DNA of 64,000 nucleotides, from positions 1-64,000 of the forward strand of contig NZ_SULI01000008.1 in NCBI RefSeq assembly GCF_005518135.1. The letters run 5' to 3'. Shown piece by piece: positions 470-16,789 of the stretch. Under the pieces are notes generated by a model. That model did not search any database, had not been told where the DNA came from, and saw only the letters and a list, made by a program, of their open reading frames with translations. Source of the stretch: Shimia litoralis (GTDB taxonomy: Bacteria; Pseudomonadota; Alphaproteobacteria; Rhodobacterales; Rhodobacteraceae). The stretch's first letter is position 1. Every line of letters begins with the position of its first letter. The position numbers and the translations under genes are program-made.

Positions 470-1327
470 CTATCGCTTAGACTTGTCTTGAAATGCGATC
501 ATGATCAGAGCCAGAAGCGACGAGCCGATCATCAGCAACAATGAAACCGCATTTAGCAATGGGGTTGATCCTTCCTTCAACCGATCAAACATCGCGATTG
601 TCAGTGGGGCATCTGATCCAACTAACATCAGGGTCGTGTTAAAATTTTCAAAGCTCATCAGAAATGCCACGACAAAAGCCCCGATCAATGCCGGGCGAAG
701 AAAGGGTAAAGTGACCGTTCGTATCGCAGTAAGCTGACTTGCACCCAGATTGAGCGCCGCCTCCTCCAGAGTTCTGTCAAACTTCTGTAGGCGGGCTCCC
801 ACGACCAGCGTTGCAATAGTCGTGATAAAGGAAAACTGTCCGAGCACCACGAGCCAAAGACCGGGCCGCAATATTTCTAAGTCGATTTGGTAAGCGTCCC
901 ATACTTCGTTGGCCACGCGGCTTGAGAATACTAGAATGGAAATCCCCAATACAATTCCCGGAATAACAAGCGGCAACAACATCAGGACGTATAGAAGGCT
1001 TTGCCCCCGAAAGTTGTATCGATTGAAGAGAAATGCATTCGAGAGACCGACACAGACCGACAAGGCAGACACAAGGAATGCGACAAAAACTGAGGTGCCA
1101 ATCGCACGCAAGATAGAGCGTTCGTGAAACACACCTATCATTGGCCGTTCTACTCCAAAGAACCAGTTCCAGGTAAAACCCTCCCATGGGAGAGAAGGAA
1201 ATTGACCGTCGTTGAATGCAAAAACGGCTACAACCACCAAAGGCAGGGCCAAAAATACAAAGAACAAGGCCACATACGTGCCATACGCGAAGGTCAGCAA
1301 TCGCGGTTGCGGGATTGACGGTATCAA
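470..1327 (-). CDS. ABC transporter permease, PotC-like (polyamine/opine-type importer)
   Basis: Inner-membrane permease of a spermidine/putrescine-type ABC importer, 285 residues. It has about six hydrophobic segments and the EAA-type loop that contacts the ATPase near residue 190 (EEAALNLGASQLTAIRTVTLP). It is the last gene of a four-gene transporter set: binding protein, ATPase, PotB-like permease, then this gene, starting 13 bases after the previous stop. PotBC permease pairs are heterodimers, so this should work with the gene at 1341-2198. The substrate cannot be read from the permease. The neighbouring gamma-glutamyl ligase and dehydrogenases suggest an amine or amino alcohol rather than only polyamines. 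No convincing terminator follows. Confidence 0.9.
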   Translation of the reverse strand: MIPSIPQPRLLTFAYGTYVALFFVFLALPLVVVAVFAFNDGQFPSLPWEGFTWNWFFGVERPMIGVFHERSILRAIGTSVFVAFLVSALSVCVGLSNAFLFNRYNFRGQSLLYVLMLLPLVIPGIVLGISILVFSSRVANEVWDAYQIDLEILRPGLWLVVLGQFSFITTIATLVVGARLQKFDRTLEEAALNLGASQLTAIRTVTLPFLRPALIGAFVVAFLMSFENFNTTLMLVGSDAPLTIAMFDRLKEGSTPLLNAVSLLLMIGSSLLALIMIAFQDKSKR

Positions 1328-1340
1328 TTCATGTCTCCCA

Positions 1341-2198
1341 TCACCCCATGGTCTTTTCTAAAGATTGCCCGGTCAGTTTTAACATGCCCCAGACGATAAC
1401 AGAGGAAAGCATCAGCAATAAAAAGCCAAAGGCAGCACCAAGCTCCCAATTAAAGCGGACAATGAACTGTGAGTAGATCAATTCGGTAAACCAAAGGCTT
1501 TCCTTTCCGCCCAGCATTGTCGGTGTCAGATAATTGCCTAGGCTCAGCATAAATACCACAATGCATCCCGAGACGATCCCCGGCATCGCATGCGGAACAA
1601 TGATCTCTCTCAGCACACTGAGCCCATTTCCGCCAAGGTCATATCCTGCTTCGACAACCTCATCCGGCAAGCTCTCCAACGTCGTTACCAATGGCACGAC
1701 CATGAACAGCATGGATGTATAGACAAGTCCCACCATAATGGCCCCATCGTTGTAGAGCATCTCAACGGGACCGCTCGCCAGCCCGACAAACTGCAATATG
1801 TTCGAAAAGACACCGGTTTCTCGAAGCAGGATCATCCAGCCAAATGTCCGGACAAGTTCGGACACCCAGAAGGGCACGAGACATAAGAGAAACAAGGCAG
1901 ATTGCATCCGTCCCTTGATCATCTTGGCGATGTAGTAGGACACAGGAAAGGCGATCAAAAGCGTAATGAGTGTCGCAACAATGGACATCATCGCAGTACG
2001 GAGAAACGTCCAAAGATACAGCGGTTCGTTGAAAAATGTCAGGTAGTTGGCCAGACTGGTTTGGTATTGCCCAACGCCAATCCGTTCACGGAGCGACACC
2101 AGAAAGACATCGACCTGGGGGATGAATATCAAAAGTGCCAGCCACAAAAGCAGGGGCGTTAGTAACAAAGCCAATCCAAGTTTTGATTCCGTGCGCAT
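1341..2198 (-). CDS. ABC transporter permease, PotB/PotH-like
   Basis: Second inner-membrane permease of the importer, 285 residues, with a hydrophobic N-terminal helix, about six membrane segments and an EAA loop (EVVEAGYDLGGNGLSVLREI) around residue 185. Its ATG follows the ATPase stop directly (TAAATG), so translation is probably coupled. The order of the set (binding protein, ATPase, two permeases) is common for PotDABC-like importers in alphaproteobacteria. Together with the PotC-like protein it should form the membrane channel energised by the ATPase at 2199-3299. Confidence 0.9.
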   Translation of the reverse strand: MRTESKLGLALLLTPLLLWLALLIFIPQVDVFLVSLRERIGVGQYQTSLANYLTFFNEPLYLWTFLRTAMMSIVATLITLLIAFPVSYYIAKMIKGRMQSALFLLCLVPFWVSELVRTFGWMILLRETGVFSNILQFVGLASGPVEMLYNDGAIMVGLVYTSMLFMVVPLVTTLESLPDEVVEAGYDLGGNGLSVLREIIVPHAMPGIVSGCIVVFMLSLGNYLTPTMLGGKESLWFTELIYSQFIVRFNWELGAAFGFLLLMLSSVIVWGMLKLTGQSLEKTMG

Positions 2199-3299
2199 TT
2201 AAACTGTTCCAGCCGCGAAACAATTGCCTTGATCGCTTGACCAGCCAATATGAACGTCAGACCCTTTGTTCAAAGAAGCAAATTCGCCAGACTGAGGAAG
2301 ATTAACTTCGATCTCGTCTTGGAGCCCCTCCCCGCGGACAAGAACGCGACTTGCGGCACCATTGAACAGCAAAGATGTGACCTGACCGGAAATTTGGTTG
2401 TCAAAAACTGCCAGATCATCTTTTGAATGGGCAATCCGAATAGCTTCGGGGCGTACAAACATGTCCGCTTGTTCACCCAATGCCAATGGGCGCCCGTGAG
2501 TGGCGCCGCGCAGCATCATGCCACTCTCGGTTTGCAACTCTATGTTCTGTCCGTCCTTTTTAGAAATACGTCCACGCCACCGGTTCGTATCGCCGACAAA
2601 CCCGGCGACAAATGCAGTGTCGGGGCGATAGTACAGCTCGCGTGCTGACCCCATTTGCTCAAACCGCCCGTTGTTCATGACCGCAATATTGTCGGACATC
2701 ACAAGTGCTTCGGATTGGTCATGCGTGATATAGACAAAGGTCGTATCAAACGCTGATTGAAGGGATTTGAGTTCAATTTTCATATGTTCGCGCAGCTTAA
2801 GATCAAGCGCACCAAGGGGTTCATCTAACAAGAGCACATCAGGTTCGAGCACCATACAGCGCGCGATCGCAACACGTTGTTTCTGTCCACCAGAAAGCTC
2901 GTCAACCTTGCGCAGGCCAATTCCGGGAAGGCCAATGCGTTCCAGCGCCTCGCCAACCTTTTGGTCTATTTCGGTTTTCGGCAGACCTGCACGGCGCAAC
3001 CCATAGCCGATATTGTCGGCAATGTTCATCATCGGAAAAAGCGCAAGATGCTGGAAAACCATGTTCACCGGACGCTTGTTCGGTGCGACGCTTAGAACCG
3101 ACTTTCCTTTGATTTGAATATCGCCTTCAGAGGGCTCGAGAAAGCCAGCGATCATCCGCATAATGGTCGTTTTGCCACAACCTGATGGCCCTAGGATGGA
3201 AAAGAAAGACCCGGGTGGTACTGAAAAGGAAACGCTGTCTACCGCAGCCGTATCCCCAAACCGTTTCGTCAGATGTGTGCATTCAAGATCAGGTGTCAT
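2199..3299 (-). CDS. ABC transporter ATP-binding protein, PotA-like
   Basis: Cytoplasmic ATPase of the polyamine-type importer, 366 residues from the ATG at 3299. Visible motifs are Walker A (GPSGCGKTT), the signature LSGGQKQRVAIARCM, Walker B with LLLDEPLGALD, and a C-terminal TOBE-like region from about residue 280. An in-frame ATG at 3350 would add 17 residues, but it lies inside a stem-loop only 12 bases after the binding-protein stop, and the added residues are unlike the family. The homologous start MTPDLECTHLTKRFG is therefore preferred. The ribosome-binding site is weak, so the ATPase may be made at lower level than the binding protein. Confidence 0.9.
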   Translation of the reverse strand: MTPDLECTHLTKRFGDTAAVDSVSFSVPPGSFFSILGPSGCGKTTIMRMIAGFLEPSEGDIQIKGKSVLSVAPNKRPVNMVFQHLALFPMMNIADNIGYGLRRAGLPKTEIDQKVGEALERIGLPGIGLRKVDELSGGQKQRVAIARCMVLEPDVLLLDEPLGALDLKLREHMKIELKSLQSAFDTTFVYITHDQSEALVMSDNIAVMNNGRFEQMGSARELYYRPDTAFVAGFVGDTNRWRGRISKKDGQNIELQTESGMMLRGATHGRPLALGEQADMFVRPEAIRIAHSKDDLAVFDNQISGQVTSLLFNGAASRVLVRGEGLQDEIEVNLPQSGEFASLNKGSDVHIGWSSDQGNCFAAGTV

Positions 3300-3321
3300 G
3301 GTCGACTTCTTAATTTGAGAA

Positions 3322-3348
3322 GGGCACCCACCTAGAAAGTGGATGCCC
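3322..3348 (-). promoter_or_regulatory. Intergenic stem-loop between binding-protein and ATPase genes
   Basis: On the minus-strand RNA, GGGCAUCCAC and GUGGGUGCCC pair over 10 bases with one G-U, closing a 7-base loop. There is no U-run after it, so it is not a canonical terminator. The position just after the binding-protein gene is where such hairpins protect upstream mRNA or attenuate downstream genes, giving excess binding protein. Confidence 0.6.
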
Positions 3349-3362
3349 ATATTTGCTTTGAC

Positions 3363-4433
3363 TTACTTAGCCGCTTTTACGCGATCCAGAACGCCACCTT
3401 CGATTGCCTCAAGACCGGCAGGCACAGGTGGGTACCATTTGATGTTGTCGATCGCTGCCTGTGGAAAGCTGTTTTGGTACTTGGCTTTCAGGTCAGCTGC
3501 TGCAAATTCATCGGCGCCTTGTGACGCTGTGAAGTTGCCTGCTGCTGCTGTGATCATTGCCGCGACTTCGGGCTGCATCACAAAGTTGATCCAAGCATAG
3601 GCTGCATCATCTGCTTTGCCTTTTGCGGGCAGGACAAATGTGTCAACCCAACCCAAGGCACCAGAAGCGGGTGCAACAAAGGTGATATCGGGCTTATCAG
3701 CATTCAGCTTCCATCCACCTGTATCCCAAGCCATGGATGCCACAACTTCGCCTGACCGCAACAAGCCCATCAATTCGTCACCGCCGCCCCAGTACGTTTT
3801 AACGCCTGGTTTGCATTCAATCAGTTTGGCTTCGACCTGTGACATGACATCTGCATAAGCTGCCTCATCACCATAGGCTGCAAACGGGTCCAGTCCCATT
3901 GAGAATGCAAAACCGATCAAAGTAGGTCGCTTGAGGCGATAAGATACTTTGCCCGCGACATCTGCGCTACACAGGTCTGTATAATCTTTCACCATTGGGG
4001 CCATTGCCGTGTCGACAACCAACCCGCTGGTGCCCCAGACGTGTGGAACGCCATAAACATCACCACCAACCGTCGTGTTGCCTTTTGTCGCTTCCATCAT
4101 GGACGGAATGAACAGAGCGGCGTCAATTTTCGACATGTCCATCGGCTTGTAAATGCCAAATTCTTCCTGAGGGCCTGCAATCCGGTCTTGGCTTGGTTGT
4201 GCCAGATCGAAACCGCCACCACCAGTTGCACGCAACTTGGCGATCATTTCTTCGTTGTTGGATTTGGTGACTTCCACTGTGTGGCCTGTTTCAGCTTCGA
4301 ATTTGGCCACCACATCTTCGGGGGCATATCCACCCCAAGTCAAAAGCCGGAGCGTGTCCGCATGTGCCGCAGAGCCGCCGGCCAGTAGTGCAAAGGTTAC
4401 TGAAGCCGAGAGTGCTATAGAATGTTTTTTCAT
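3363..4433 (-). CDS. Periplasmic substrate-binding protein of polyamine-type ABC importer (PotD-like)
   Basis: Periplasmic solute receptor, 356 residues, with a Sec signal peptide (MKKHSIALSASVTFALLAGGSAAHA). The mature protein opens with DTLRLLTWGGYAPEDVV, typical of the PotD/PotF family (type 2 periplasmic binding fold). It starts the ABC set, followed by ATPase and two permeases. A gap of about 257 bases separates it from the upstream alcohol dehydrogenase, so it may have its own promoter. Family members bind polyamines, opines, GABA-like or other cationic small molecules. The ligand here is inferred from context as the amine handled by the neighbouring ligase and dehydrogenases, not read from binding residues. 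Confidence 0.88.
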   Translation of the reverse strand: MKKHSIALSASVTFALLAGGSAAHADTLRLLTWGGYAPEDVVAKFEAETGHTVEVTKSNNEEMIAKLRATGGGGFDLAQPSQDRIAGPQEEFGIYKPMDMSKIDAALFIPSMMEATKGNTTVGGDVYGVPHVWGTSGLVVDTAMAPMVKDYTDLCSADVAGKVSYRLKRPTLIGFAFSMGLDPFAAYGDEAAYADVMSQVEAKLIECKPGVKTYWGGGDELMGLLRSGEVVASMAWDTGGWKLNADKPDITFVAPASGALGWVDTFVLPAKGKADDAAYAWINFVMQPEVAAMITAAAGNFTASQGADEFAAADLKAKYQNSFPQAAIDNIKWYPPVPAGLEAIEGGVLDRVKAAK

Positions 4434-4690
4434 TGTTCGTGTCCCTGTTGAAGACCAATTTAGTTGAGTAAGCGGTCAGCCTGATAGTGTTGTGCTCATT
4501 AGTCAAATTTTCAGAGCATTAAGAACTCTGACAAAAGAGCTGCGTTAAGCGGACTGACGAACGCGCTCGACGCAAATTTTTTCCCGTTTCTGAGACAGGG
4601 CTTAACCGGGAACAGTGCACGTTTTGTGACAATGGTCAGGTTCAAACTGTCTGGATTCATAAATTGTTGGAGGGCTCCTTTGCCATCACG
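4434..4690 (-). promoter_or_regulatory. Leader region of the ABC importer genes
   Basis: A 257-base gap between the alcohol dehydrogenase stop and the binding-protein start, inside a run of genes otherwise spaced by a few bases to about 60 bases. It has no credible reading frame. It is the most likely place for a second promoter serving the importer genes, but I could not assign -35 and -10 boxes with confidence. Confidence 0.3.
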
Positions 4691-5836
4691 TTAGACGATT
4701 TGCAGCAATAACTTGCGCGTGTTCTCTTCGGTCATCTCGATTGGGTTGCCACCGGTGCTGGGGTCAATCAACGCGCCCCGAACGATCCGATCAATATCTG
4801 GGGATGAGACGCCGAGTTCTGTCAAGGATTTTGGAATGTTCAGTGATGCATTCAAATGATCGACGTAGTCGCAAAAACCGTCAAACCCATCTTGAATGCC
4901 CAGATAGTTTGCCGCTTGGCTAAACAGGTCTTCGATCGCAGGTCTATTAAATTGCAATACTGCGGGCATGCAAACCGCGTTCGTTGTCCCGTGATGGGTG
5001 TGATAGATCGCACCAATCGGATGGGACAACGCGTGGATTGCGCCTAAACCTTTTTGGAACGCGGTTGCGCCCATGGCGGCGGCAGACATCATATGTGCCC
5101 GTGCCTCCAGATCCGTTCCATCAGCATAAGCCCGTGGAAGGTATTCTTTGACCAGACGCATTCCTTCGAGTGCCATACCCTGTGACATCGGATGGTAGTG
5201 CGGAGAGCTAAAGGCCTCAACGCAATGGGCAAATGCATCAAGCCCGGTGCCAGCCGTGATAAATCCGGGCATCCCAACAGTCAGTTCTGGGTCACAGATC
5301 ACGACGGATGGCAGGAATTTGGGGTGAAAAATGATCTTCTTTTCTTCGGTCTCAGAATTTGTAATGACCGAGGCACGCCCCACCTCAGACCCTGTGCCAG
5401 CAGTCGTTGGAACAGCCACGATTGGAGCAATCGCATCCGCGTCGGCGCGCGTCCACCAATCTCCGATATCTTCGAAATCCCACAGCGGGCGGGTTTGCCC
5501 CGCAAGAAAGGCCACCAGTTTTCCCAGATCAAGACCTGACCCTCCGCCAAATGCCACAACGCCATCGTGACCACCTTCATTGAAGGCGCGAACACCGGCA
5601 GCTGCGTTCTTTTCGTTTGGGTTGGGATCAACATCAGCAAAGATCGCGCGGCCAAGCCCCGCGTTTTCCAGCAAATCCAAGGTGCGGGTTGTGATATCCA
5701 TATTGGCCAGACCACGATCCGTCACCAGCAACGGTTTTTTGATACCGGCAGCAGCACAAGCATCAGCAATTTCAGAGATGCGTCCGGCCCCGAAACGAAC
5801 AGAAGTAGGGTAGGACCAATTTGCAGTAAGTGACAT
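4691..5836 (-). CDS. Iron-containing alcohol dehydrogenase
   Basis: NAD-dependent group III alcohol dehydrogenase, 381 residues, the usual family length. The nucleotide-binding GGGSGLDLGK motif is near residue 97. Candidate metal ligands are in GTGLDAFAHCVEA and in the His-rich LSHPIGAIYHTHHGTTNA (residues about 195-290). It would oxidise a primary alcohol to an aldehyde in the cytoplasm. The aldehyde dehydrogenase gene ends four bases upstream of its start, so the two enzymes should act in sequence. In the putrescine gamma-glutamyl pathway this step is done by an amine oxidase (PuuB). Having an alcohol dehydrogenase instead suggests that the far end of the glutamylated substrate is a hydroxyl group. 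Confidence 0.9.
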   Translation of the reverse strand: MSLTANWSYPTSVRFGAGRISEIADACAAAGIKKPLLVTDRGLANMDITTRTLDLLENAGLGRAIFADVDPNPNEKNAAAGVRAFNEGGHDGVVAFGGGSGLDLGKLVAFLAGQTRPLWDFEDIGDWWTRADADAIAPIVAVPTTAGTGSEVGRASVITNSETEEKKIIFHPKFLPSVVICDPELTVGMPGFITAGTGLDAFAHCVEAFSSPHYHPMSQGMALEGMRLVKEYLPRAYADGTDLEARAHMMSAAAMGATAFQKGLGAIHALSHPIGAIYHTHHGTTNAVCMPAVLQFNRPAIEDLFSQAANYLGIQDGFDGFCDYVDHLNASLNIPKSLTELGVSSPDIDRIVRGALIDPSTGGNPIEMTEENTRKLLLQIV

Positions 5837-5840
5837 AAGA

Positions 5841-7214
5841 TCAGGCCTTTTTTAGGTGGTAGGATTTGGGACGGGTAAGGTTGTGATAGCCAATGACTGA
5901 CAGCCCACCTCCGCGCCCAGTGTTTTTACATCCGGTCCAGCACAAAGCAGGATCAAGGTAGTCTGCCCTGTTCATAAAGACGGTACCAGTATCGATTTGA
6001 TCCGCAATAGTTTCGGCGCGCGTGGGGTCTTGCGTCCAAAGGGAGGCGGTCAGGCCAAAATCACTATCGTTCATAAGGCGAATAGCCTCCGCATCACTTT
6101 TGACCGACATGATGCCAACCACAGGACCAAAGCTTTCTTCGCGCATCACGCGCATATTGTGGGACACGTTGGTCAAAATCTGGGGCATCAGATAGGCGCC
6201 GCTGTCTTGTGGGAAATCCGATGGTTTGATGTGAGCGATGGCACCCGCGGCTACCGCCTCTTGCACTTGCGAGCGCACCTCGTCGGCAAACCTGACATGC
6301 GCCATTGGCCCCAAGGTCGTTTCCATATCCAGCGGATTGCCAAGCTTATAGCCATTTACGATTGAAACGGCCTTCTCAACAAAGGCATCAAACAGGGTTT
6401 CATGCACATAAATTCGTTCAATCCCGCAACAGCATTGACCTGAGTTGAACATTGCACCGTCAATCAGCGTGTCGACCGCCGCATCCAGATTGGCATCTTC
6501 CATGACATAGCCCGGATCTTTGCCACCAAGTTCAAGACCAAGCCCAGTGAACGTGCCACTTGCAGCCGCTTCCATGGCCTTGCCGCCACCCACCGATCCT
6601 GTGAAATTCACAAATCCAAAGGATCGGGCCGCAATCAAATCCGAAGTGGTTTGATGATCAAGGAATACGTTCTGGAAAACATCCTTGGGAACACCGGCGG
6701 CGTGGAACGCTGCGGCCATTCGCTCACCGACCACGGGGGTCTGTGACGCATGTTTCAACATAACTGCATTGCCCGAGATCAAGGCCGGAGCCACTGTGTT
6801 GATCGCCGTCATATAGGGATAATTCCATGGGGCGACCACTAGGATCAAACCATGCGGAACACGCTTTATCACTCGACGAAATGCATCACTGTCCTCGATC
6901 TCAATAGGAGCAAGAGCATCCTGCGCGATTTCGGCCATGTAGCTGGCGCGTTCATTGAAGCCACCAAACTCACCACCATAGCGAACCGGGCGCCCCATCT
7001 GCCAAGCGATCTCAGGCACGATTTCGTCGTTCAGTTCACCAACACGCGCAACGCTTGCCTGTACCAGTTCGATCCGCTCTTGCAGCGGTCGCGCTGCCCA
7101 TTCAGCCTGCGCCAGTTGGGCTTTTTCCACCGCATCTTGCGCCTGAGCAAGGGTGAGGGTCTCTCGTTCTGCGTAAACGGAACCATCAATTGGTGAGATA
7201 CATCTGATTGTCAT
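5841..7214 (-). CDS. NAD(P)-dependent aldehyde dehydrogenase
   Basis: Aldehyde dehydrogenase superfamily, 457 residues. The oxyanion Asn lies in PWNYPY (N131), the general base Glu in LGLELGGKDPG (E228), and the nucleophile in FNSGQCCCGIERIYV (C262 by alignment with GQxC). Length matches the succinate-semialdehyde/gamma-glutamyl-aldehyde type. It sits between the ligase (gap of 3 bases) and the alcohol dehydrogenase (gap of 4 bases), so one mRNA is likely. It should convert the aldehyde made by the alcohol dehydrogenase to the acid, the role PuuC plays in the putrescine pathway. The three adjacent Cys residues are a little unusual. Confidence 0.9.
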   Translation of the reverse strand: MTIRCISPIDGSVYAERETLTLAQAQDAVEKAQLAQAEWAARPLQERIELVQASVARVGELNDEIVPEIAWQMGRPVRYGGEFGGFNERASYMAEIAQDALAPIEIEDSDAFRRVIKRVPHGLILVVAPWNYPYMTAINTVAPALISGNAVMLKHASQTPVVGERMAAAFHAAGVPKDVFQNVFLDHQTTSDLIAARSFGFVNFTGSVGGGKAMEAAASGTFTGLGLELGGKDPGYVMEDANLDAAVDTLIDGAMFNSGQCCCGIERIYVHETLFDAFVEKAVSIVNGYKLGNPLDMETTLGPMAHVRFADEVRSQVQEAVAAGAIAHIKPSDFPQDSGAYLMPQILTNVSHNMRVMREESFGPVVGIMSVKSDAEAIRLMNDSDFGLTASLWTQDPTRAETIADQIDTGTVFMNRADYLDPALCWTGCKNTGRGGGLSVIGYHNLTRPKSYHLKKA

Positions 7215-7217
7215 GGA

Positions 7218-8582
7218 CTAGGCCCTTTCAAAGCCACGTGCGATTTCCCAATCGGTCACCACACGGTCAAATTCTTCTTGTTCCCATTCTGCAGCACGCG
7301 TGTAGTGATCGACAACATCGTCGCCCATTACGTCGCGCAAGAAAGCTGAATTGCGGAGTGTTTCTGTCGCGCGTCGCAGGGTCTGTGGAATATCCTGTGC
7401 CTTGGCGTCTTCGTAGACGTCCCCGGTGGTCGGAGGGGACAGTTCCATTTCGTCTTCAATTCCCTTGATGCCTGCGGCGAGCATGGCCGCTTGTGCCAAA
7501 TACGGATTGAGGTCTGACCCACCAATGCGGCATTCGACGCGTACCCCTTTGGTGCCATCGCCACACAGACGGAACCCTGCGGTGCGATTGTCTACGGACC
7601 ACACGGTCTTGGTCGGGGCAAAGGTCCCTTTGGAAAAGCGCTTGTAGCTGTTGACATAAGGGGCAAGAAAATATGTGTAATCTGGCGAAAAGGCGATCAA
7701 TCCCGCCATATAGTGGCGCATCAGTTTGGATTGGCACAGCTTTTCGGATGGATCATAAAATACGGGCTGTCCGTCTTTCCAAAGGGATTGATGCACATGC
7801 GAAGAAGACCCCACGCGATCCTGATGCCATTTAGGCAGAAATGTCGCTGCGTGGCCGTTCTGCCATGCGATTTCTTTGATGGCATGTTTGGCAATCGAGT
7901 GGTGATCGGCGCAATTTAGGGCGCTATCATACCGGATGTTCAGCTCTTCTTGGCCTGACTCGGCCTCGCCTTTGGTGTTCTCAATGGGCAAACCCGCTGC
8001 AAAGAGATGGTTGCGGATCGGCCGCATCACGTTCTCTTCTTTGGTGGTTTGAAAAATGTGATAATCTTCGTTGTACCCACTGATGGGTTCCAGATTTCGA
8101 AAGCCCTCTTTGCGGATCTCGTCAAAGCTCTTTTCGAACAGGAAAAACTCCAGTTCGGTCGCCATTTTTGCCTCAAACCCCAATGCCTCAAGACGTTCGA
8201 TTTGCTTTTTCAAAATGGCACGGGGCGAATGGGAAATAGGTTCATGTGTGTGGTGATCCAGAATATCGCAAAGCACCATGACCGTCCCATCAAGCCATGG
8301 AATAGGGCGGATTGTTCCAAGATCTGGCTTCATCACGTAATCGCCATAGCCGGATTGCCAACTGGTTGAAGCATAGCCATCTGGCGTTGCCATTTCCAAA
8401 TCGGTGGCAAGCAAGTAGTTGCAGCAATGCGTCTCATTATAAGACGTCTCAACGAAGTTGGCTGCGTGGAAACGTTTGCCCATCAAGCGGCCTTGCATAT
8501 CCACAAAGCAGACCAAAACGGTATCAATCGCTCCTTCTGAGACGCGGGATTTAAGGTCATCAAAACTCAGGGTGCCAGGCAT
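7218..8582 (-). CDS. Glutamine synthetase-like gamma-glutamylamide ligase (PuuA/GlnA-like)
   Basis: Glutamine-synthetase fold enzyme, 454 residues from the ATG at 8582, expected to join glutamate to an amine with ATP. Visible features are an N-terminal beta-grasp part, metal-site glutamates (ATELEFFLF, then KGEAESGQEELNIRYD), HVHQSLWKDG, and the C-terminal block YKRFSKGTFAPTKTVWSVDN plus ECRIGGSDLNPY. These match the PuuA/GlnT-like branch rather than housekeeping GlnA: the adenylylation-loop Tyr motif is absent. An extension to 8711 would overlap the TRAP binding-protein gene and the strong hairpin, so the shorter start is chosen. Followed at once by aldehyde and alcohol dehydrogenases. The substrate is inferred to be an amine, perhaps an amino alcohol. 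Confidence 0.82.
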   Translation of the reverse strand: MPGTLSFDDLKSRVSEGAIDTVLVCFVDMQGRLMGKRFHAANFVETSYNETHCCNYLLATDLEMATPDGYASTSWQSGYGDYVMKPDLGTIRPIPWLDGTVMVLCDILDHHTHEPISHSPRAILKKQIERLEALGFEAKMATELEFFLFEKSFDEIRKEGFRNLEPISGYNEDYHIFQTTKEENVMRPIRNHLFAAGLPIENTKGEAESGQEELNIRYDSALNCADHHSIAKHAIKEIAWQNGHAATFLPKWHQDRVGSSSHVHQSLWKDGQPVFYDPSEKLCQSKLMRHYMAGLIAFSPDYTYFLAPYVNSYKRFSKGTFAPTKTVWSVDNRTAGFRLCGDGTKGVRVECRIGGSDLNPYLAQAAMLAAGIKGIEDEMELSPPTTGDVYEDAKAQDIPQTLRRATETLRNSAFLRDVMGDDVVDHYTRAAEWEQEEFDRVVTDWEIARGFERA

Positions 8583-8607
8583 GTCATGTCCACTTGCAAA
8601 AGATGTG

Positions 8608-8636
8608 TGCGGGGGCAGAGAAAATCTGCCCCCGCA
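8608..8636 (-). promoter_or_regulatory. Perfect stem-loop after the TRAP binding-protein gene
   Basis: TGCGGGGGCAGA (8608-8619) and TCTGCCCCCGCA (8625-8636) pair perfectly over 12 bases around GAAAA. It begins five bases after the binding-protein stop (leftward) and lies about 25 bases before the ligase ATG. No clean U-run follows, so partial termination or mRNA protection seems likelier than full stop. Confidence 0.75.
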
Positions 8637-8640
8637 GGAT

Positions 8641-9675
8641 TTAGCCGTAACGGTAAGGTCGGCCAGCCTTAACCATATCGGCATTATACTTCTTGATAAT
8701 GTCGACCACACGGCGTTTTACTTCCGATTCAGCCGCGATCTCTTCCCAGAATTCAAACGCCTTGGCCTCAACTGTGGCCCATTCGTCGTCAGGAATAGAT
8801 GTCAGTTCCATCTTGGGACCATTCACACGCAGATCCGCTTCTCCACCCCAATACCACCACTGACGATAGTAGTGCGACTGGTCACAGCACACACGGAACA
8901 GTGTTTGCAGGTCTTCTGGCAGTTCGTTCCAACGATCCATGTTGGCATAAAACGACCCAGCCCATGCACCCGAAATGTTGTTGGTCAGGAAGTAGTTCGT
9001 TACGTCAGCCCAGCCGACGGTGTAATCTTCGGTAATACCTGACCAGGCAATGCCATCCAGTTCTCCGGTTTGCATGGCGACTTCAATGTCTTCCCAAGGC
9101 AGGTTTACCGGAATCACACCAAACTGGCTTAGGAAACGACCCGCTGTGGGGAAGGTAAAGACGCGTTTGCCTTTAAGATCGGCAAGGCTGCGGATCGGGT
9201 CTTTGGTGGCAAAGTGGCAAGGATCCCAAGACCCGGCACTGATGTGCTTTACACCAACTTTTGAGTATTCCTCATCCCAGATTTCGTTCAGGCCGTATTG
9301 GTTGAACAGTACCGGCACATCCAGTGAGTAACGCGATGCAAAAGGGAAGTATCCGCCAAACACGGTGACTTCAGTTGGCGACGCCATTGAGTCATCATCT
9401 GATTGAACAGCATCAATTGTGCCACGCTGCATCGCCTGAAACAGCTCGCCCGTAGGCACAAGCTGATCGGCAAAGAACAGTTCGATCTGCATGCGATCAC
9501 CAGCGATCTTGTTGAACATTTCAACGGCAGGCACGATCACGTGCTCTGCCAGTGCCGCACCTGCATAGGTCTGCATGCGCCACTTGATTGTGCTTTGGGC
9601 CAACGCTGGGGCTGCGAGCGCGGCAGCTGGGGCTGCGGCTGCGGCACCTTGAATAAACTTACGTCTAGTAGTCAT
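8641..9675 (-). CDS. TRAP transporter solute receptor (DctP family)
   Basis: Periplasmic receptor of a tripartite ATP-independent transporter, 344 residues. The N-terminus MTTRRKFIQGAAAAAPAAALAAPALAQ carries a twin-arginine-like RRKFI and an AxA-type cleavage site, so export is probably by Tat. The mature part begins IKWRMQTYAGAAL, characteristic of the mannitol/2-oxoacid-type TRAP receptors, and keeps the WSGITEDYTVGW region. It follows the large permease gene by about 47 bases and precedes a strong stem-loop, which may raise its level relative to downstream enzymes. The ligand is unknown. Members of this branch bind organic acids or lactate-like compounds, so it may not carry the same molecule as the ABC importer. 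Confidence 0.9.
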   Translation of the reverse strand: MTTRRKFIQGAAAAAPAAALAAPALAQSTIKWRMQTYAGAALAEHVIVPAVEMFNKIAGDRMQIELFFADQLVPTGELFQAMQRGTIDAVQSDDDSMASPTEVTVFGGYFPFASRYSLDVPVLFNQYGLNEIWDEEYSKVGVKHISAGSWDPCHFATKDPIRSLADLKGKRVFTFPTAGRFLSQFGVIPVNLPWEDIEVAMQTGELDGIAWSGITEDYTVGWADVTNYFLTNNISGAWAGSFYANMDRWNELPEDLQTLFRVCCDQSHYYRQWWYWGGEADLRVNGPKMELTSIPDDEWATVEAKAFEFWEEIAAESEVKRRVVDIIKKYNADMVKAGRPYRYG

Positions 9676-9722
9676 TTCTCTCTCCGTTGTTGTTAATACT
9701 GCCGCATTTTCCTGCGGTTCTT

Positions 9723-11051
9723 TTAGGGTTTGTTGTAAACGTAATCAGGGAGCCACGTGGCAATGCCCGGGAACACCATGACCAGGACAAGCGCCAGCAC
9801 CATCACCATCACAAATGGTGTGATCGAGGCGTAAATATCGCGCAGAGTAATTTCCGGCGGCGCCATGGCTCTCATCAGGAACAGATTGTAACCGAAGGGC
9901 GGAGTCATATAGGCGATCTGCGTTGTGATCGTGTAGAGCACACCATACCAAATCAAATCAAAGCCTAGCTCTCCGACCAGTGGGACATATAGAGGCGCGA
10001 CAATCACCAACATCGCGGTGTCATCCAGAAACGTGCCCATCAAAATAAAGCTGAGCTGCATGAGGATAAGGATCATCCAAGGGCTCAGGTTCAACCGTTC
10101 GGTAAACAGGTTTTCGATGGCTTTCACCGCACCTAAGCCATCGAACACAGCCCCAAATGCCAGTGCAGCCAGAATGATCCACATGAACATACAAGTGATG
10201 CCAAGCGTTTTGCGGACGGAATTCTCAAAGACTTCCCGGGTCATGCGTCGCTTGACGACTGCGGCTACAAAGGCCGCCAATGCCCCGATAGCCGAGCTTT
10301 CAACAAGTGACGTCCAGCCGTTTACAAACGGGATCATCATGGTTGCGAAAATGATGATCGGCAAAAGGCCCGCTCGCAACAGCCGAAGCTTTTCAGCCCG
10401 TGGAATGTCGCGTTCTTCTTTGGACAAGACCGGCCCAAGATCTGGGTTCACGCGGCAGCGGACGACGATGTAGAGAATGAACAACCCCGCCATCATTAAT
10501 CCCGGCAACACACCAGCCAACCAGAGTTGGCCAACCGGTTGACGCGCGATCATCGCATAAAGCACCAAGACCACCGAAGGCGGCACAAGAATGCCCAGAC
10601 TGGATCCGGCTTGAATAACACCCGTCACCATTCGTTTGTCGTACCCGCGCTTTAACAGTTCAGGCAGCGCAATAGTTGACCCAATGGCCATTCCCGCCAC
10701 ACTAAGACCATTCATCGCCGAAATCAGAACCATCAATCCGATGGTGCCGATCGCAAGCCCACCACGCAGCCCTCCCATCCAGACATGGAACATCTTGTAC
10801 AGATCATCAGCAATTTTGCTTTCAGACAGCACATAGCCCATGAAAATAAACATAGGCAGCGTTAGCAACGGGTACCATTTCATTAGCTTCATTGCGGCCG
10901 AAAACCCAAGATCATATCCGCCTTTGTCCCCCCACAACACCAAAGCGGCGACAACGGCAACAAAGCCGATCGCACCAAACACGCGCTGCCCCGTTAAAAG
11001 CATCAGCATCATGGACGAAAACATCAGAGTGGCGATCATTTCATAGGACAT
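9723..11051 (-). CDS. TRAP transporter large permease (DctM family)
   Basis: Large membrane subunit, 442 residues and about 12 hydrophobic segments, which carries the ion-coupled transport pathway. The segment GLSVAGMAIGSTIALPELLKRGYDKRM and the late GTFLDDTAMLVIVAPLYVPL match the DctM family. Its ATG overlaps the stop of the small permease gene by one base (TGATG), so translation is coupled. With the small permease and the receptor downstream it forms a complete QMP set in the order Q-M-P. It should sit in the inner membrane and use a sodium or proton gradient. Confidence 0.92.
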   Translation of the reverse strand: MSYEMIATLMFSSMMLMLLTGQRVFGAIGFVAVVAALVLWGDKGGYDLGFSAAMKLMKWYPLLTLPMFIFMGYVLSESKIADDLYKMFHVWMGGLRGGLAIGTIGLMVLISAMNGLSVAGMAIGSTIALPELLKRGYDKRMVTGVIQAGSSLGILVPPSVVLVLYAMIARQPVGQLWLAGVLPGLMMAGLFILYIVVRCRVNPDLGPVLSKEERDIPRAEKLRLLRAGLLPIIIFATMMIPFVNGWTSLVESSAIGALAAFVAAVVKRRMTREVFENSVRKTLGITCMFMWIILAALAFGAVFDGLGAVKAIENLFTERLNLSPWMILILMQLSFILMGTFLDDTAMLVIVAPLYVPLVGELGFDLIWYGVLYTITTQIAYMTPPFGYNLFLMRAMAPPEITLRDIYASITPFVMVMVLALVLVMVFPGIATWLPDYVYNKP

Positions 11052-11608
11052 CAGATGTCTTCACCCTTCAGACGCAAGACGTCTTTTAAAAACTCTGAAA
11101 AACACTGCAAGATCATTAGAAACATGCCGACAATCATCAGAGCCTTGATCGGCCAAATATAAGGTCGCCACGCGGTCGGCGAACGCTCTAGACGCCCGAC
11201 TTCTTCAGTCCCGATCAAAATGCCAGCTAGAAAAGATGTCGGCTCTGATCCCCAATATCCCAGCGAATAGGCGGTCGAGCTAATCCCGCCATACAGCAAA
11301 ACACACAGGTAAAAGATCAACAGAAGAACCGTGACCAGATCAAACCAGGCCTTTTTGCGGGTGCTCCATTCGCCATAAAGCAAATCCATCCGCACATTTG
11401 TCCCCATCTGGATCGAATAGGGACCGCCCAGAATGTAGTACGCAACCATCACGAACTGGGCCATTTCCAGTGTCCACAAGGATGGCAGGAAAAAGGTTTT
11501 GCTGATCGAGGACCAAAGCAAAATACCCATCAGGACAAAGATGCCATACATCGCGATCCGTCCGATCCGAAGGTTTACGGCATCAACGGCCCCTATGTAT
11601 CCGTGCAT
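11051..11608 (-). CDS. TRAP transporter small permease (DctQ family)
   Basis: Small membrane subunit with four hydrophobic segments, 185 residues from the ATG at 11608 or 189 from the ATG at 11620. The start at 11608 forms a TGATG overlap with the upstream hydrolase stop, the same junction this gene makes with the large permease, so I prefer it. MELAQFV-like region (LEMAQFVMVAYYILGGPYSIQ) and TNVRMDLLYGEWS are family hallmarks. It bridges the receptor and large permease in TRAP systems. Confidence 0.88.
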   Translation of the reverse strand: MHGYIGAVDAVNLRIGRIAMYGIFVLMGILLWSSISKTFFLPSLWTLEMAQFVMVAYYILGGPYSIQMGTNVRMDLLYGEWSTRKKAWFDLVTVLLLIFYLCVLLYGGISSTAYSLGYWGSEPTSFLAGILIGTEEVGRLERSPTAWRPYIWPIKALMIVGMFLMILQCFSEFLKDVLRLKGEDI

Positions 11609-12387
11609 CAAACCACGCATTCAACGGAACCTTGTGCATTTAGCGAAGCAAACGCAGCGACAATCCATCCGGCAAGCATATCCGCCATCCGGATCTGCTC
11701 GGCGTCTGTCCGAATGAGATCATTTCGGATCTCAAGCATCACATTGAAATGGTCGTCTGGTATTGCATGCTCAATCAACGTATGGGTCACGCCATGCTCG
11801 GGCCCATAGGGCTGATTGCGCCGAACGTTTGCCTGCGTGTGATCGGCCGCCAACGCCAGCATTGCGTCCGCCAGACGAGTATCCGTGTCATGCAACACGC
11901 CAATTTCGACGGCACGTTGCTGACCATGATACACAGGCGTAAAACTATGAATTGTTACGATGACCGGGTTTGCTGTCTTCGCTATTTTGCTTTTCAAGGC
12001 ACGCTGAAACGGCTCGTAGTAAGCTTGAACTCTATGGTTTCGCTCCGCGAAGCTTAGCCCCAAATTGCCGGGAATATCAATAATTTCGCTGCGGGCTGGC
12101 ATCGCATCCGGCGCAGTTGGCGGGCGGTTACAATCATAAACCAATCGCGAAACACCACTGGCAACCAAAGACGCATCCAAGTTGTCAGCAAGACGTTGAG
12201 CCACTGCCAAAGCGCCGGGATCCCAAGCCACATGGCTTTTGCAAAGCTCATCCTGCAAACCCAGGCTGTTAAACTCTGCCGGAATAAACGACGATGCATG
12301 TTCGCACACCAATAGAACCGACGACAACCCAACGGGGTTTATCGTTTGAGTATACTCATCTGAAATTTCTCGATTGCTGTCGATCAT
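11608..12387 (-). CDS. N-formylglutamate amidohydrolase-family hydrolase (HutG-like)
   Basis: Metal-dependent amidohydrolase of the N-formylglutamate deformylase family, 259 residues from the ATG at 12387, which has a strong GAGGGGG ribosome-binding site. Conserved pieces are LLVCEHASSFIPAEF near the N-terminus, VYDCNRPP, VTIHSFTPVYHGQ and LEIRNDLI, which carry the likely metal and substrate residues. Known members release formate from N-formylglutamate in histidine breakdown, but no other hut genes are here. As first gene of the island it may instead split an N-acyl or gamma-glutamyl amide, the place PuuD holds in the putrescine route. That role is an inference. Confidence 0.82.
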   Translation of the reverse strand: MIDSNREISDEYTQTINPVGLSSVLLVCEHASSFIPAEFNSLGLQDELCKSHVAWDPGALAVAQRLADNLDASLVASGVSRLVYDCNRPPTAPDAMPARSEIIDIPGNLGLSFAERNHRVQAYYEPFQRALKSKIAKTANPVIVTIHSFTPVYHGQQRAVEIGVLHDTDTRLADAMLALAADHTQANVRRNQPYGPEHGVTHTLIEHAIPDDHFNVMLEIRNDLIRTDAEQIRMADMLAGWIVAAFASLNAQGSVECVV

Positions 12388-12503
12388 CGCACCCCCTCGA
12401 GACGTAAACTTCTGTCGCGAGGTAGATTCTGTCAACAAAATTCTGTATTATTTATTTCAGAGCTTTTAGGTTTGTAAAATTATAGATCAGAATGGAGCCT
12501 TTC
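12388..12503. promoter_or_regulatory. Divergent promoter region between island operon and RpiR regulator
   Basis: This 116-base AT-rich gap must hold the leftward island promoter and the rightward regulator promoter. TTCTGT occurs three times in the same orientation at 12410, 12427 and 12441. A TTGACA lies on the minus strand at 12435-12430, without a convincing -10. The repeats are candidate RpiR operator half-sites. Confidence 0.4.
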
Positions 12504-13376
12504 ATGTCGAACTCAGAGCAAACTATTTCTGATCGCATTCAACAGAAACTGGATGATCTGACCCGCGCGGAACGCCAGTTGGCCCATTCAATATTGGAAA
12601 ACTACCCTGCATCTGGTCTGGGCCCCCTGACCGCGCTGGCAAAAGACGCAAATGTCTCAGCGCCTACCGTCGCCAGAATGGTTCAGAAGCTGGGCTACAA
12701 AGGATACTCCGAATTCCAAGCCGAGTTGCGCGAAGAGTTAAAAGCAAAAGCCAAAGACCCGATCGCCAAGCACGATGCCTGGGCCGAGGGCGTTCCTTCA
12801 GAGCATATGCTGAACCGTTTCACTGATGCGGTGATCGACAATATCCGCCACACTTTGGGACATATCGACCCAGAATTGTTTGATCTGGCGTGCAGCATGG
12901 TCGCCGCGCCCAAGAGCCGAATGTACATTGTGGGTGGGCGGATCACGCACACTCTTGCCGAATACCTGTTCCTCCATATGCAGGTCATCCGACCAGAAGT
13001 GGTTCACATTCAATCCACATCGAACGCTTGGCCGCATTATCTTTTGGATGTCAAAGAAGGTGACGTCTTTGTCATCTTTGACATGCGACGATATGAAAAC
13101 AACACTCTAAAGCTGGCCGAGATGGCCCACAAAAAGGGCGCAAAACTGATCCTGTTTACAGACCAGTGGCGCTCGCCAATTCATCGTTTGGCGGACATCA
13201 GCTTTAGCAGCAGGATTGTGGTTCCCTCTGCCTGGGATTCCGCCGCTTCCACGCTCCTTTTGGTTGAGACGATGATTTCAACAGTTCAAAACCTGTGCTG
13301 GGGTGACACAAAAGATCGGGCTGAAGAGTTGGAGAAAATGTTCGATCAGACACGGCTGTTTCGAAAATTCACGTAA
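12504..13376 (+). CDS. RpiR/MurR-family transcriptional regulator
   Basis: Transcription factor of 290 residues from the ATG at 12504, which has GGAG seven bases upstream; an ATG at 12492 overlaps that site and is less likely. The N-terminal RpiR helix-turn-helix (SDRIQQKLDDLTRAERQLAHSI, then APTVARMVQKLGYKGYSEFQ) covers residues about 10-80. The C-terminal SIS domain contains MYIVGGRITHTLAEYL and VFVIFDMRRYENN. SIS domains in this family bind phosphosugars or other small phosphorylated or acidic ligands. It is divergent from the island operon by 116 bases, so it most probably controls that operon and itself. Confidence 0.88.
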   Translation: MSNSEQTISDRIQQKLDDLTRAERQLAHSILENYPASGLGPLTALAKDANVSAPTVARMVQKLGYKGYSEFQAELREELKAKAKDPIAKHDAWAEGVPSEHMLNRFTDAVIDNIRHTLGHIDPELFDLACSMVAAPKSRMYIVGGRITHTLAEYLFLHMQVIRPEVVHIQSTSNAWPHYLLDVKEGDVFVIFDMRRYENNTLKLAEMAHKKGAKLILFTDQWRSPIHRLADISFSSRIVVPSAWDSAASTLLLVETMISTVQNLCWGDTKDRAEELEKMFDQTRLFRKFT

Positions 13377-13431: not shown

Positions 13432-14166
13432 CTACAAGGCCAACATGACTGTCCTTAATGCCGCGCAAAGACCACGCCACTCAGCGAGAGCAGCTGTGCG
13501 GTTCAGCTTGAAATGGCATCTTTTCGAAAGGCTGCGGTCCTGATTAAAGTGATTGAAAATGGACGCGTGGACGGAGACGAATTTCTGGAAACTTCGCATC
13601 CGGCGAAAGCGGTGCATGCCCCTCTCTCGCCTTCGGAAAGGTAGATGGGAATTCTCAGCACGGTTATTCTTCCAACGGCCAGTTTCTAGCCTGACCGCAT
13701 TCCCGAAAACTTTCATTGCGGCACCATAGGAACGCAATTTGTCGGTCACGATGACTTCCGGTTGTCCATACCGCTTCATCGCTTTCTTCATAAATTTAAA
13801 GGCTGCGACCTTATCCCGGCGCTTAGTGACGAAACTTTCTAGCACCTCACCTTCGTGATCAACGGCCCGCCATAGGTAATGCCGTTCGCCGTTAATCTTT
13901 ACAAAAACCTCATCAAGATGCCATCGCCAGTTCGAGTAACACCGCATCCGGTCGATCCGTTTTCGACGGATTTCAGATGCAAACAACGGACCAAATCTGT
14001 TCCACCAAAATCGGATAGTTTCATGGTTCACGTCAATACCGCGTTCATAGCACCAAAACAGCCCGCGCTTGTCGCCAATCCAATGTATCTTTTGACTGTA
14101 GTCCCGAAACCTATGATCGAAAATTGGTTTCTCCGAAAACAGCTGGCGAAGGCCATGGCCTGCCAA
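13432..14166 (-). mobile_element. IS6-family transposase, N-terminal part apparently degraded
   Basis: The region from residue about 40 onward is a good IS6-family transposase: RGIDVNHETIRFWWNRFG, first Asp in WRWHLDEVFVKINGERHY, second Asp in VTDKLRSYGAA, and Glu in NNRAENSHLPFRRRER, so the DDE triad is intact. The first 40 residues do not show the usual FPLSLRNVEDLL-like helix-turn-helix, which suggests a frameshift or replacement at the 5' end. I could not find convincing terminal inverted repeats. It lies on the same strand as the left-edge IS6 fragment but belongs to a different subgroup, so the two are not copies of one element. Confidence 0.75.
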
Positions 14167-16130: not shown

Positions 16131-16789
16131 GGGACGGGTTTCCCCGCCCAATCGAAAAAGCCACCGTTGTCGGCTGGAGTCAGCTGATCAAGAACCGCAA
16201 CAAGGTTTGCGGCCGCCTCGTTTGGCGTCACTTTTGCATGCCCAGAGTAAGCCTTGGAGAAGGGCGTCTCTACGGTGCCCGGATGCAAAGACACTACAAT
16301 GGCCTGTTTGCGCTTTCTCGAGATCTCGATAGCCGCCGTGCGCACGATCTGATTGGCTGCAGCCTTGGACGCGCGGTAGCTGTACCACCCCCCAAGGTGG
16401 TTATCACCGATCGACCCGACACGGGCAGTGAGAACTCCCACCACGCATTGTGCGTCTTGCGGCAAAAGCCGAGGCAGGTGTTTCAAAACCAACGCAGGGC
16501 CAATGGCATTCACCGCCAAGACGCGCGCTAAGTTTTCTGCCTCAATCTCTGCAAGCGACTTCTCGGGGCGTGCGCCCTCGGGGGCCAGAATTCCGCTGGC
16601 AATCAAGACCGTGTCGAAAGGTCCTCGCAACACGCTCATGGCCCTCTCGACGCTGGTGGGATCAGTTAGATCCAATCCGTCGCCTGCGCGCGACAGCCGC
16701 GTCACCTCGGAACCATATGTTGCGAGAGCCGCGGAAAGCGCCGTGCCAATCCCACCCGAGGCCCCTATGACAAGTGCGCGGCGCGTCAT
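16124..16789 (-). CDS. Short-chain dehydrogenase/reductase family protein
   Basis: Classical SDR of 221 residues with the Rossmann glycine motif VIGASGGIGTAL at residue about 7, NAIGPALV near the active-site Asn, and catalytic WYSYRASKAAANQ (YxxxK). The substrate is unknown. It overlaps the DUF2256 gene upstream by four bases (ATGA) and the photolyase downstream by seven bases, so the three are surely co-transcribed. The same SDR commonly accompanies photolyase genes in marine bacteria. A role in making or recycling a cofactor is possible but not shown by the sequence. Confidence 0.88.
   Translation of the reverse strand: MTRRALVIGASGGIGTALSAALATYGSEVTRLSRAGDGLDLTDPTSVERAMSVLRGPFDTVLIASGILAPEGARPEKSLAEIEAENLARVLAVNAIGPALVLKHLPRLLPQDAQCVVGVLTARVGSIGDNHLGGWYSYRASKAAANQIVRTAAIEISRKRKQAIVVSLHPGTVETPFSKAYSGHAKVTPNEAAANLVAVLDQLTPADNGGFFDWAGKPVPW

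What the first reader, a model, noticed from the sequence alone, without database searches (positions are those of the whole stretch)
470..12387. Candidate gamma-glutamylation pathway for an amino alcohol, with two importers
A GS-like ligase, aldehyde dehydrogenase and iron alcohol dehydrogenase are packed within a few bases, next to a HutG-like hydrolase, a polyamine-type ABC importer and a TRAP transporter. The known putrescine route (PuuA-PuuB-PuuC-PuuD) uses an amine oxidase at step two. Here an alcohol dehydrogenase replaces it. A simple reading is: amino alcohol + glutamate to gamma-glutamyl amide, alcohol to aldehyde to acid, then hydrolysis to an amino acid plus glutamate. For ethanolamine this would yield glycine without a cobalamin lyase. 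Gene content is seen; the pathway is inferred.
Basis: partly seen in the sequence, partly recalled or inferred. Interest (0 to 1): 0.65.

Follow-up and report, generated by a model that had tools for sequence, protein, structure and literature searches.

The report
Known ethanolamine-to-glycine operon with extra importer
A gene cluster, in a relative of marine roseobacters, that very likely imports ethanolamine and turns it into glycine by first tagging it with glutamate; the pathway has already been described in relatives, and only the neighbouring second importer is still unexplained.

Summary
The genes are there as described. Gene families, gene order and transport protein match the ethanolamine operon of Phaeobacter sp. 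MED193 (RpiR, gamma-glutamylglycine amidohydrolase, EtoVWX TRAP importer, ethanolamine gamma-glutamylase, aldehyde dehydrogenase, Fe-alcohol dehydrogenase; PMC10132767). The four enzyme families equal those listed for Chromohalobacter salexigens (PMC9397018). The TRAP binding protein matches PDB 4uab/4xf5 at 628 bits (next 69). Among 66 assessable loci of close ligase relatives, 48 carry all eight genes. No EutB was found in the genome.

What I did not see in the papers is the PotDABC-type ABC importer at 470-4433. It recurs in 10 of 64 relatives' loci, in two orientations. In 198 sampled family genomes it co-occurs with the ligase (26 of 28, against 90 of 170; p = 4e-5) and lies within 10 kb in 11. 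Its binding protein lacks one acidic residue tied to polyamine binding. I read it as an importer of ethanolamine or a relative; that is unproven.

Side findings: some operons lack the aldehyde dehydrogenase, and this genome has a second ligase-ADH pair beside 2-aminoethylphosphonate genes.

The parts
12492..13376 (+). RpiR/MurR-family regulator (HTH_6 + SIS), divergent from the operon
   Evidence: found near the ligase in 52 of 66 assessable relatives' loci; RpiR also heads the MED193 operon
11608..12387 (-). FGase-family amidohydrolase, probable gamma-glutamylglycine amidohydrolase (ORF open to TTG at 12438)
   Evidence: PF05013 E 2.7e-38; only PDB match 2odf (Atu2144) E 8.8e-77; 60 of 66 loci
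11051..11620 (-). TRAP transporter small permease subunit (EtoV-type)
   Evidence: 54 of 66 loci; not scanned with Pfam
9723..11051 (-). TRAP transporter large permease subunit (EtoW-type)
   Evidence: 54 of 66 loci; not scanned with Pfam
8641..9675 (-). TRAP substrate-binding protein (EtoX-type)
   Evidence: 4uab/4xf5 628 bits over 318 aa, next 69 bits; Phe where the aligned keto-acid TRAP protein 2hzk has Arg
7218..8582 (-). GS-family ligase, probable gamma-glutamylethanolamide synthetase
   Evidence: 5dm3 765 bits, then 11zs 608 bits, then 186 bits and below; below NCBIfam cut-offs for GlnA, GS III and gamma-glutamylputrescine synthetase
5841..7214 (-). aldehyde dehydrogenase, probable gamma-glutamylacetaldehyde dehydrogenase
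   Evidence: PF00171; ELGG and GQCC motifs present
4691..5836 (-). iron-containing alcohol dehydrogenase, probable gamma-glutamylethanolamide dehydrogenase
   Evidence: PF00465; D200, H204, H268, H282 present
3363..4433 (-). PotD-type ABC substrate-binding protein, ligand unknown
2199..3350 (-). PotA-type ABC ATPase
1341..2198 (-). PotB-type ABC permease
470..1327 (-). PotC-type ABC permease

Best explanation
It is an ethanolamine-utilisation operon of the gamma-glutamylation type. An EtoVWX-type TRAP importer brings ethanolamine in. The GS-family ligase joins it to glutamate with ATP. The Fe-ADH oxidises the alcohol to the aldehyde and the ALDH oxidises that to gamma-glutamylglycine. The FGase-family enzyme hydrolyses this to glycine and glutamate, so glutamate is recycled and no cobalamin lyase is needed. 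A divergent RpiR protein is the likely regulator. The PotDABC-type ABC cassette downstream is an importer that often travels with the operon, most likely for ethanolamine or a related small amine. Shown here: gene content, orthology to the described operon, conserved order, no EutB found, recurrent ABC linkage. Shown by others in related systems: induction on phosphorylethanolamine, EtoX binding of ethanolamine, and the ligase step for the more distant GlnA4. Inferred: every catalytic step in this organism, the RpiR role, and the ABC ligand.
For: TRAP binding protein: 628 bits to 4uab/4xf5, next 69; Phe faces the Arg of 2hzk, and PMC4646407 states that Csal_0678 lacks the selectivity Arg and binds ethanolamine. 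Ligase: 765 bits to 5dm3. The MED193 operon lists the same genes in the same order, with five PE-induced proteins and EtoX Kd 7.9 uM. The four enzyme Pfams equal those listed for C. salexigens. Conservation: full set in 48 of 66; ADH 65, ALDH 60, FGase 60, DctP 54 of 66. No EutB in the genome; the same search found it in 1 of 14 controls, E. coli. A separate Puu-like cluster exists elsewhere. ABC linkage.
Against: No enzyme of this genome has been assayed. In MED193 steps 2-4 rest on induced proteins and family assignment, and EtoX also rose under P starvation alone; in S. coelicolor they are predictions. PMC10132767 says the pathway was demonstrated in C. salexigens and A. tumefaciens, but I could not read that source. 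Six of 66 assessable loci lack the ALDH, and seven ALDH-less genomes had no ALDH match at E<=1e-100, so that enzyme is replaceable or the route varies. No PotD orthologue of 60% or more was seen in 54 of 64 loci, and 17 of 27 fetched stretches around the ABC cassette hold no ligase.
Confidence: 0.9

Rival explanations
1. A putrescine/polyamine gamma-glutamylation route of the Puu type, fed by a polyamine ABC importer.
For: The ligase scores 203 bits against the gamma-glutamylputrescine synthetase model; the ABC binding protein's nearest folds are PotD/PotF polyamine receptors, and the Asp of its GWVDTF motif (D264), which aligns with an Asp of PotF, is kept in 16 of 16 sequences.
Against: 203 bits is far below that model's 650-bit cut-off. 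No amine oxidase or PuuD-type amidotransferase lies in the cluster, and a Puu-like set (two GS-like genes, an amidotransferase-like, an amino-acid-oxidase-like and an aminotransferase-like gene) lies elsewhere in the genome, though none of its four members scanned with NCBIfam passes a cut-off. The acidic position 39 of PotF/PotD is Gly in the window and non-acidic in 16 of 16 sequences.
Confidence: 0.04
2. Same chemistry, but the true substrate is another amino alcohol (N-methylethanolamine, aminopropanol, alaninol).
For: GS-family gamma-glutamyl ligases serve several amines; the isopropylamine (Ipu) route passes through gamma-glutamyl-L-alaninol.
Against: The TRAP protein is very close to the ethanolamine binder, and the MED193 operon responds to phosphorylethanolamine.
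Confidence: 0.06
3. The ABC importer is an unrelated neighbour of the ethanolamine operon.
For: No orthologue of 60% or more in 54 of 64 loci; 17 of 27 fetched stretches around the cassette hold no ligase; a 257-bp gap with one promoter-like site precedes it.
Against: 26 of 28 genomes with the ABC binding protein also have the ligase, against 90 of 170 without (p = 4e-5), and 11 have them within 10 kb in several arrangements. Shared ancestry makes these counts less independent than the p-value implies.
Confidence: 0.4

Closest known systems
Ethanolamine operon of Phaeobacter sp. MED193 (MED193_10021-10056; PMC10132767, passages read)
   Same: Same eight genes in the same listed order: RpiR, GGAH, EtoV, EtoW, EtoX, ETAGA, GAADDH, GETADH.
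   Different: No PotDABC cassette is listed with that operon. A PotA/PotD pair (MED193_11419/11424) is listed elsewhere as induced by P starvation; whether it is orthologous to the window's was not tested.
Chromohalobacter salexigens ethanolamine pathway (review PMC9397018 Table 2 and PMC4646407, passages read)
   Same: PF00120, PF00465, PF00171 and PF05013 enzymes, and an ethanolamine-binding TRAP protein (Csal_0678) without the selectivity Arg.
   Different: The original work (Vetting 2015; San Francisco 2015) was not read, so it is known here only through citing papers.
Streptomyces coelicolor GlnA4 pathway (PMC6529630, passages read)
   Same: Gamma-glutamylethanolamide synthetase as first step; same proposed intermediates and products, with a formylglutamate-amidohydrolase-family enzyme proposed last.
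   Different: A short-chain dehydrogenase is annotated in that cluster, and the putative transporter is not a TRAP system in the listing I saw.
Putrescine Puu pathway (PuuA-PuuB-PuuC-PuuD; recalled)
   Same: Gamma-glutamylation, oxidation, release of glutamate.
   Different: Amine oxidase instead of alcohol dehydrogenase; class I amidotransferase-type hydrolase instead of an FGase.
Isopropylamine Ipu pathway (PMC6776027, passages read)
   Same: GS-family ligase making a gamma-glutamyl amide; a gamma-glutamyl alcohol as intermediate.
   Different: A P450 makes the alcohol, and hydrolysis precedes alcohol oxidation.

Membership tests
Gamma-glutamyl ethanolamine operon (eto type) | GS-family ligase, Fe-ADH, ALDH and FGase together | tested here: met
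Gamma-glutamyl ethanolamine operon (eto type) | TRAP binding protein close to the ethanolamine binder | tested here: met
   628 bits to 4uab/4xf5, next 69; that 4uab is Csal_0678 with ethanolamine is recalled, binding by Csal_0678 is from PMC4646407
Gamma-glutamyl ethanolamine operon (eto type) | Carboxylate-selecting Arg of TRAP receptors absent | tested here: met
   Phe opposite an Arg of 2hzk; equating that Arg with SiaP Arg-147 is from recall
Gamma-glutamyl ethanolamine operon (eto type) | Same gene order with divergent RpiR | tested here: met
Gamma-glutamyl ethanolamine operon (eto type) | Ligase glutamylates ethanolamine; ADH, ALDH and FGase act on the gamma-glutamyl intermediates | not testable with these tools
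   needs enzyme assays
Puu putrescine pathway | Ligase passes the gamma-glutamylputrescine synthetase cut-off | tested here: not met
   203 bits against cut-off 650
Puu putrescine pathway | FAD amine oxidase and class I amidotransferase in the cluster | tested here: not met
   none among the proteins scanned between 470 and 13376; the two TRAP membrane subunits were not scanned
Cobalamin Eut pathway | EutB lyase in the genome | tested here: not met
   no match at E<=0.001; found in 1 of 14 control genomes, E. coli
PotD/PotF polyamine ABC importer | PotD-type fold and gene set | tested here: met
PotD/PotF polyamine ABC importer | Acidic residue at PotF/PotD position 39 | tested here: not met
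   Gly in window; non-acidic in 16 of 16 aligned; the role of position 39 is from PDB titles and recall. The later Asp (D264) is kept.

The most novel reading that the evidence does not exclude
The PotDABC-type cassette is a dedicated second input of the ethanolamine route. It would import a different ethanolamine-bearing nutrient or an N-methylated ethanolamine, so that the locus collects two lipid-derived amines into one gamma-glutamyl pathway. It would also define a non-polyamine subfamily of PotD-type receptors.
Probability: 0.35. Interest if true: 0.45.

Novelty: new member of a known kind. Interest (0 to 1): 0.22.

Why it matters
PMC10132767 reports that ethanolamine importer genes are abundant and expressed across the ocean, and this type of operon would let bacteria use ethanolamine as glycine without vitamin B12. 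The pathway itself is described, so the value here is the mapped conservation, a recurrent ABC importer of unknown ligand, and operons that lack the dedicated aldehyde dehydrogenase. These are concrete, testable loose ends.

Tried and rejected
Polyamine (Puu) reading: set aside on the synthetase cut-off, the missing oxidase and amidotransferase, and a separate Puu-like cluster. Cobalamin Eut reading: no EutB. True glutamine synthetase: another GS gene of the genome (L001, the best PF00120 match) has a Glu in GFEAP where the window has Phe in GTFAP; that L001 is GlnA and that this Glu is the catalytic flap residue are recalled.

Substrate of the ABC from its neighbours: in 27 fetched stretches no neighbour family beyond the ABC and ethanolamine genes recurred in three or more, except two in the group of about 53% identity (one in 4 of its 5 stretches, the other in 3 of 5), which in L116 are a DAO-type and a GMC-type oxidoreductase. 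Structure prediction and fold search gave polyamine receptors as nearest folds and could not give the ligand. Pho-box search upstream of 33 PotD orthologues: 5 of 33 reached a score seen in 5% or fewer of shuffles, the window's own region did not (all shuffles did as well): inconclusive.

AEP-linked second pair: looked for in the 80 loci and not found. A gene about 48-49% identical to the EamA-like gene of that cluster does lie beside the operon in L056, L064 and L080.
Full report
OBSERVATION. Order of transcription: FGase-family amidohydrolase, TRAP small subunit, TRAP large subunit, TRAP binding protein, GS-family ligase, aldehyde dehydrogenase, Fe-alcohol dehydrogenase, a 257-bp gap, then PotD-, PotA-, PotB- and PotC-type ABC genes. 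A divergent RpiR-family gene (12492-13376, +) flanks it. The two TRAP membrane subunits were placed by conserved order and sequence, not by a Pfam scan. The window is C78:1-64000 of the genome, so nothing beyond its base 1 on that contig can be read.

IDENTITY. The TRAP binding protein matches PDB 4uab/4xf5 at 628 bits over 318 residues, the next chain at 69 bits. In the alignment with the TRAP receptor 2hzk an Arg of that protein faces a Phe in the window. PMC4646407 (passage) states that Csal_0678 of Chromohalobacter salexigens lacks the selectivity Arg and binds ethanolamine; that 4uab is this protein is recalled. The ligase matches 5dm3 at 765 bits and 11zs at 608 bits, then nothing above 186 bits (the query carried three extra codons before the ATG). 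It falls below the NCBIfam cut-offs for GlnA (248 of 429), type III GS (234 of 470) and gamma-glutamylputrescine synthetase (203 of 650). The Fe-ADH has D200, H204, H268 and H282, and the ALDH has ELGG and GQCC motifs (their meaning is recalled).

KNOWN SYSTEM. PMC10132767 (passages) lists the operon of Phaeobacter sp. MED193 as RpiR, gamma-glutamylglycine amidohydrolase, EtoV, EtoW, EtoX, ethanolamine gamma-glutamylase, gamma-glutamylacetaldehyde-amide dehydrogenase, gamma-glutamylethanolamide dehydrogenase: the same genes in the same order. Five of its proteins rose on phosphorylethanolamine (EtoX also under P starvation), and EtoX bound ethanolamine with Kd 7.9 uM. The paper adds that the related genes were demonstrated to work as an ethanolamine pathway in C. 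salexigens and Agrobacterium tumefaciens C58; I could not read that source (one search was my attempt at the 2015 paper, by a DOI from memory). PMC9397018 (passages) lists PF00120, PF00465, PF00171 and PF05013 for C. salexigens, the four enzyme families here. PMC6529630 (passages) reports the first step for S. coelicolor GlnA4 and predicts the rest.

CONSERVATION. Of these, 66 have enough flank to judge. RpiR is present in 52 (identity floor 35%, which drops three at 33-35% seen), FGase in 60, TRAP binding protein in 54, ALDH in 60, ADH in 65, and all eight genes in 48. Twelve of the 66 lack the TRAP genes. Six of the 66 lack the ALDH (L017, L026, L033, L035, L038, L052), and L028, with too little flank to be counted, also lacks it. 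None of these seven genomes has an ALDH match at E<=1e-100 (their completeness is not told). They are scattered over the ADH tree and over the part of the ligase tree that I could see, which suggests repeated loss.

OWN GENOME. No EutB. A Puu-like cluster (two GS-like genes, an amidotransferase-like, an amino-acid-oxidase-like and an aminotransferase-like gene) lies on C45; none of its four members scanned with NCBIfam passes a cut-off. A second ligase-ADH pair, 88% and 87% identical to the window's, lies on C4 next to PhnW, PhnA, PhnY, the (R)-1-hydroxy-2-aminoethylphosphonate ammonia-lyase PbfA and a 2-aminoethylphosphonate ABC binding protein, all five above their cut-offs. This arrangement was not seen in the 80 loci (up to 10 kb of flank), and the genus has only this genome in the collection.

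THE ABC CASSETTE. A PotD orthologue of at least 60% identity lies in 10 of 64 loci with 8 kb or more downstream: six on the operon's strand (one of them, L016, about 7 kb beyond the ligase) and four convergent. L079 has PotC and PotB cut off by its edge, so 10 is a lower bound. In 198 genomes sampled from the family the PotD-type protein occurs in 28 (23 at 75% identity or more, five at 53%) and the ligase in 116. Both occur in 26; Fisher p = 4.2e-5, odds ratio 11.6; 11 lie within 10 kb, one of them from the 53% group. Arrangements differ: same strand after the ADH in four, convergent in four, behind RpiR in two, divergent from a ligase in one. The two data sets overlap (L031/G067 and L055/G192 have identical ligases), and shared ancestry means the p-value overstates independence. 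Of 27 fetched stretches around the cassette, 17 hold no ligase. The binding protein has the PotD fold (model pLDDT 88.9; nearest folds are polyamine receptors), but the acidic residue of the first WxxY motif is Gly, and non-acidic in the 16 sequences I aligned, while a later Asp (D264) is kept in all 16. The most likely reading is an importer of ethanolamine or a related amine.

VERDICT. A new member of a known kind of operon. The specialist interest lies in the loose ends: the ABC ligand, the ALDH-less operons, and the extra ligase-ADH pair beside aminophosphonate genes. On whether the ABC link is in print I can only say that searches (listings; only 38 asked for ABC importers) and the passages I read did not show it.

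Noticed in passing
L098 (G000:C4:1-20000), 4617-7227: Second ligase-ADH pair (88% and 87% identical to the window's, no ALDH, TRAP or FGase beside it) next to an EamA-like gene (named from sequence; no Pfam match at 1e-10) and 2-aminoethylphosphonate genes PhnW, PhnY, PhnA and PbfA. It might act on an amino-alcohol phosphonate or simply be a relocated ethanolamine copy.
   Followed up: partly
L017, L026, L028, L033, L035, L038, L052: Ligase followed directly by ADH with the ALDH missing; no ALDH match at E<=1e-100 in these seven genomes; scattered in the trees, so probably several losses.
   Followed up: partly
L027:3750-13895: A phosphonate-type importer (binding protein PF12974; ATPase and permeases named from sequence) and HAD hydrolases directly upstream of ligase-ALDH-ADH in an Amylibacter MAG with no TRAP or FGase nearby: perhaps uptake of phosphoethanolamine, dephosphorylation, then the same route.
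   Followed up: partly
L018, L021, L025, L032, L035, L039, L059, L063, L083 and others: The TRAP binding protein in the same operon slot falls into two groups, about 77-96% and about 61-64% identical to the window's.
   Followed up: no
L041, L043, L045, L058, L064, L074: FGase lies directly beside the ligase and the TRAP genes are missing; L064 has a distant (29-44%) PotDABC set downstream, suggesting importer exchange.
   Followed up: no
window 13432-14166 and 14598-16151: An apparent IS-type transposase gene and a photolyase-like gene just beyond RpiR (named from sequence only, not scanned).
   Followed up: no
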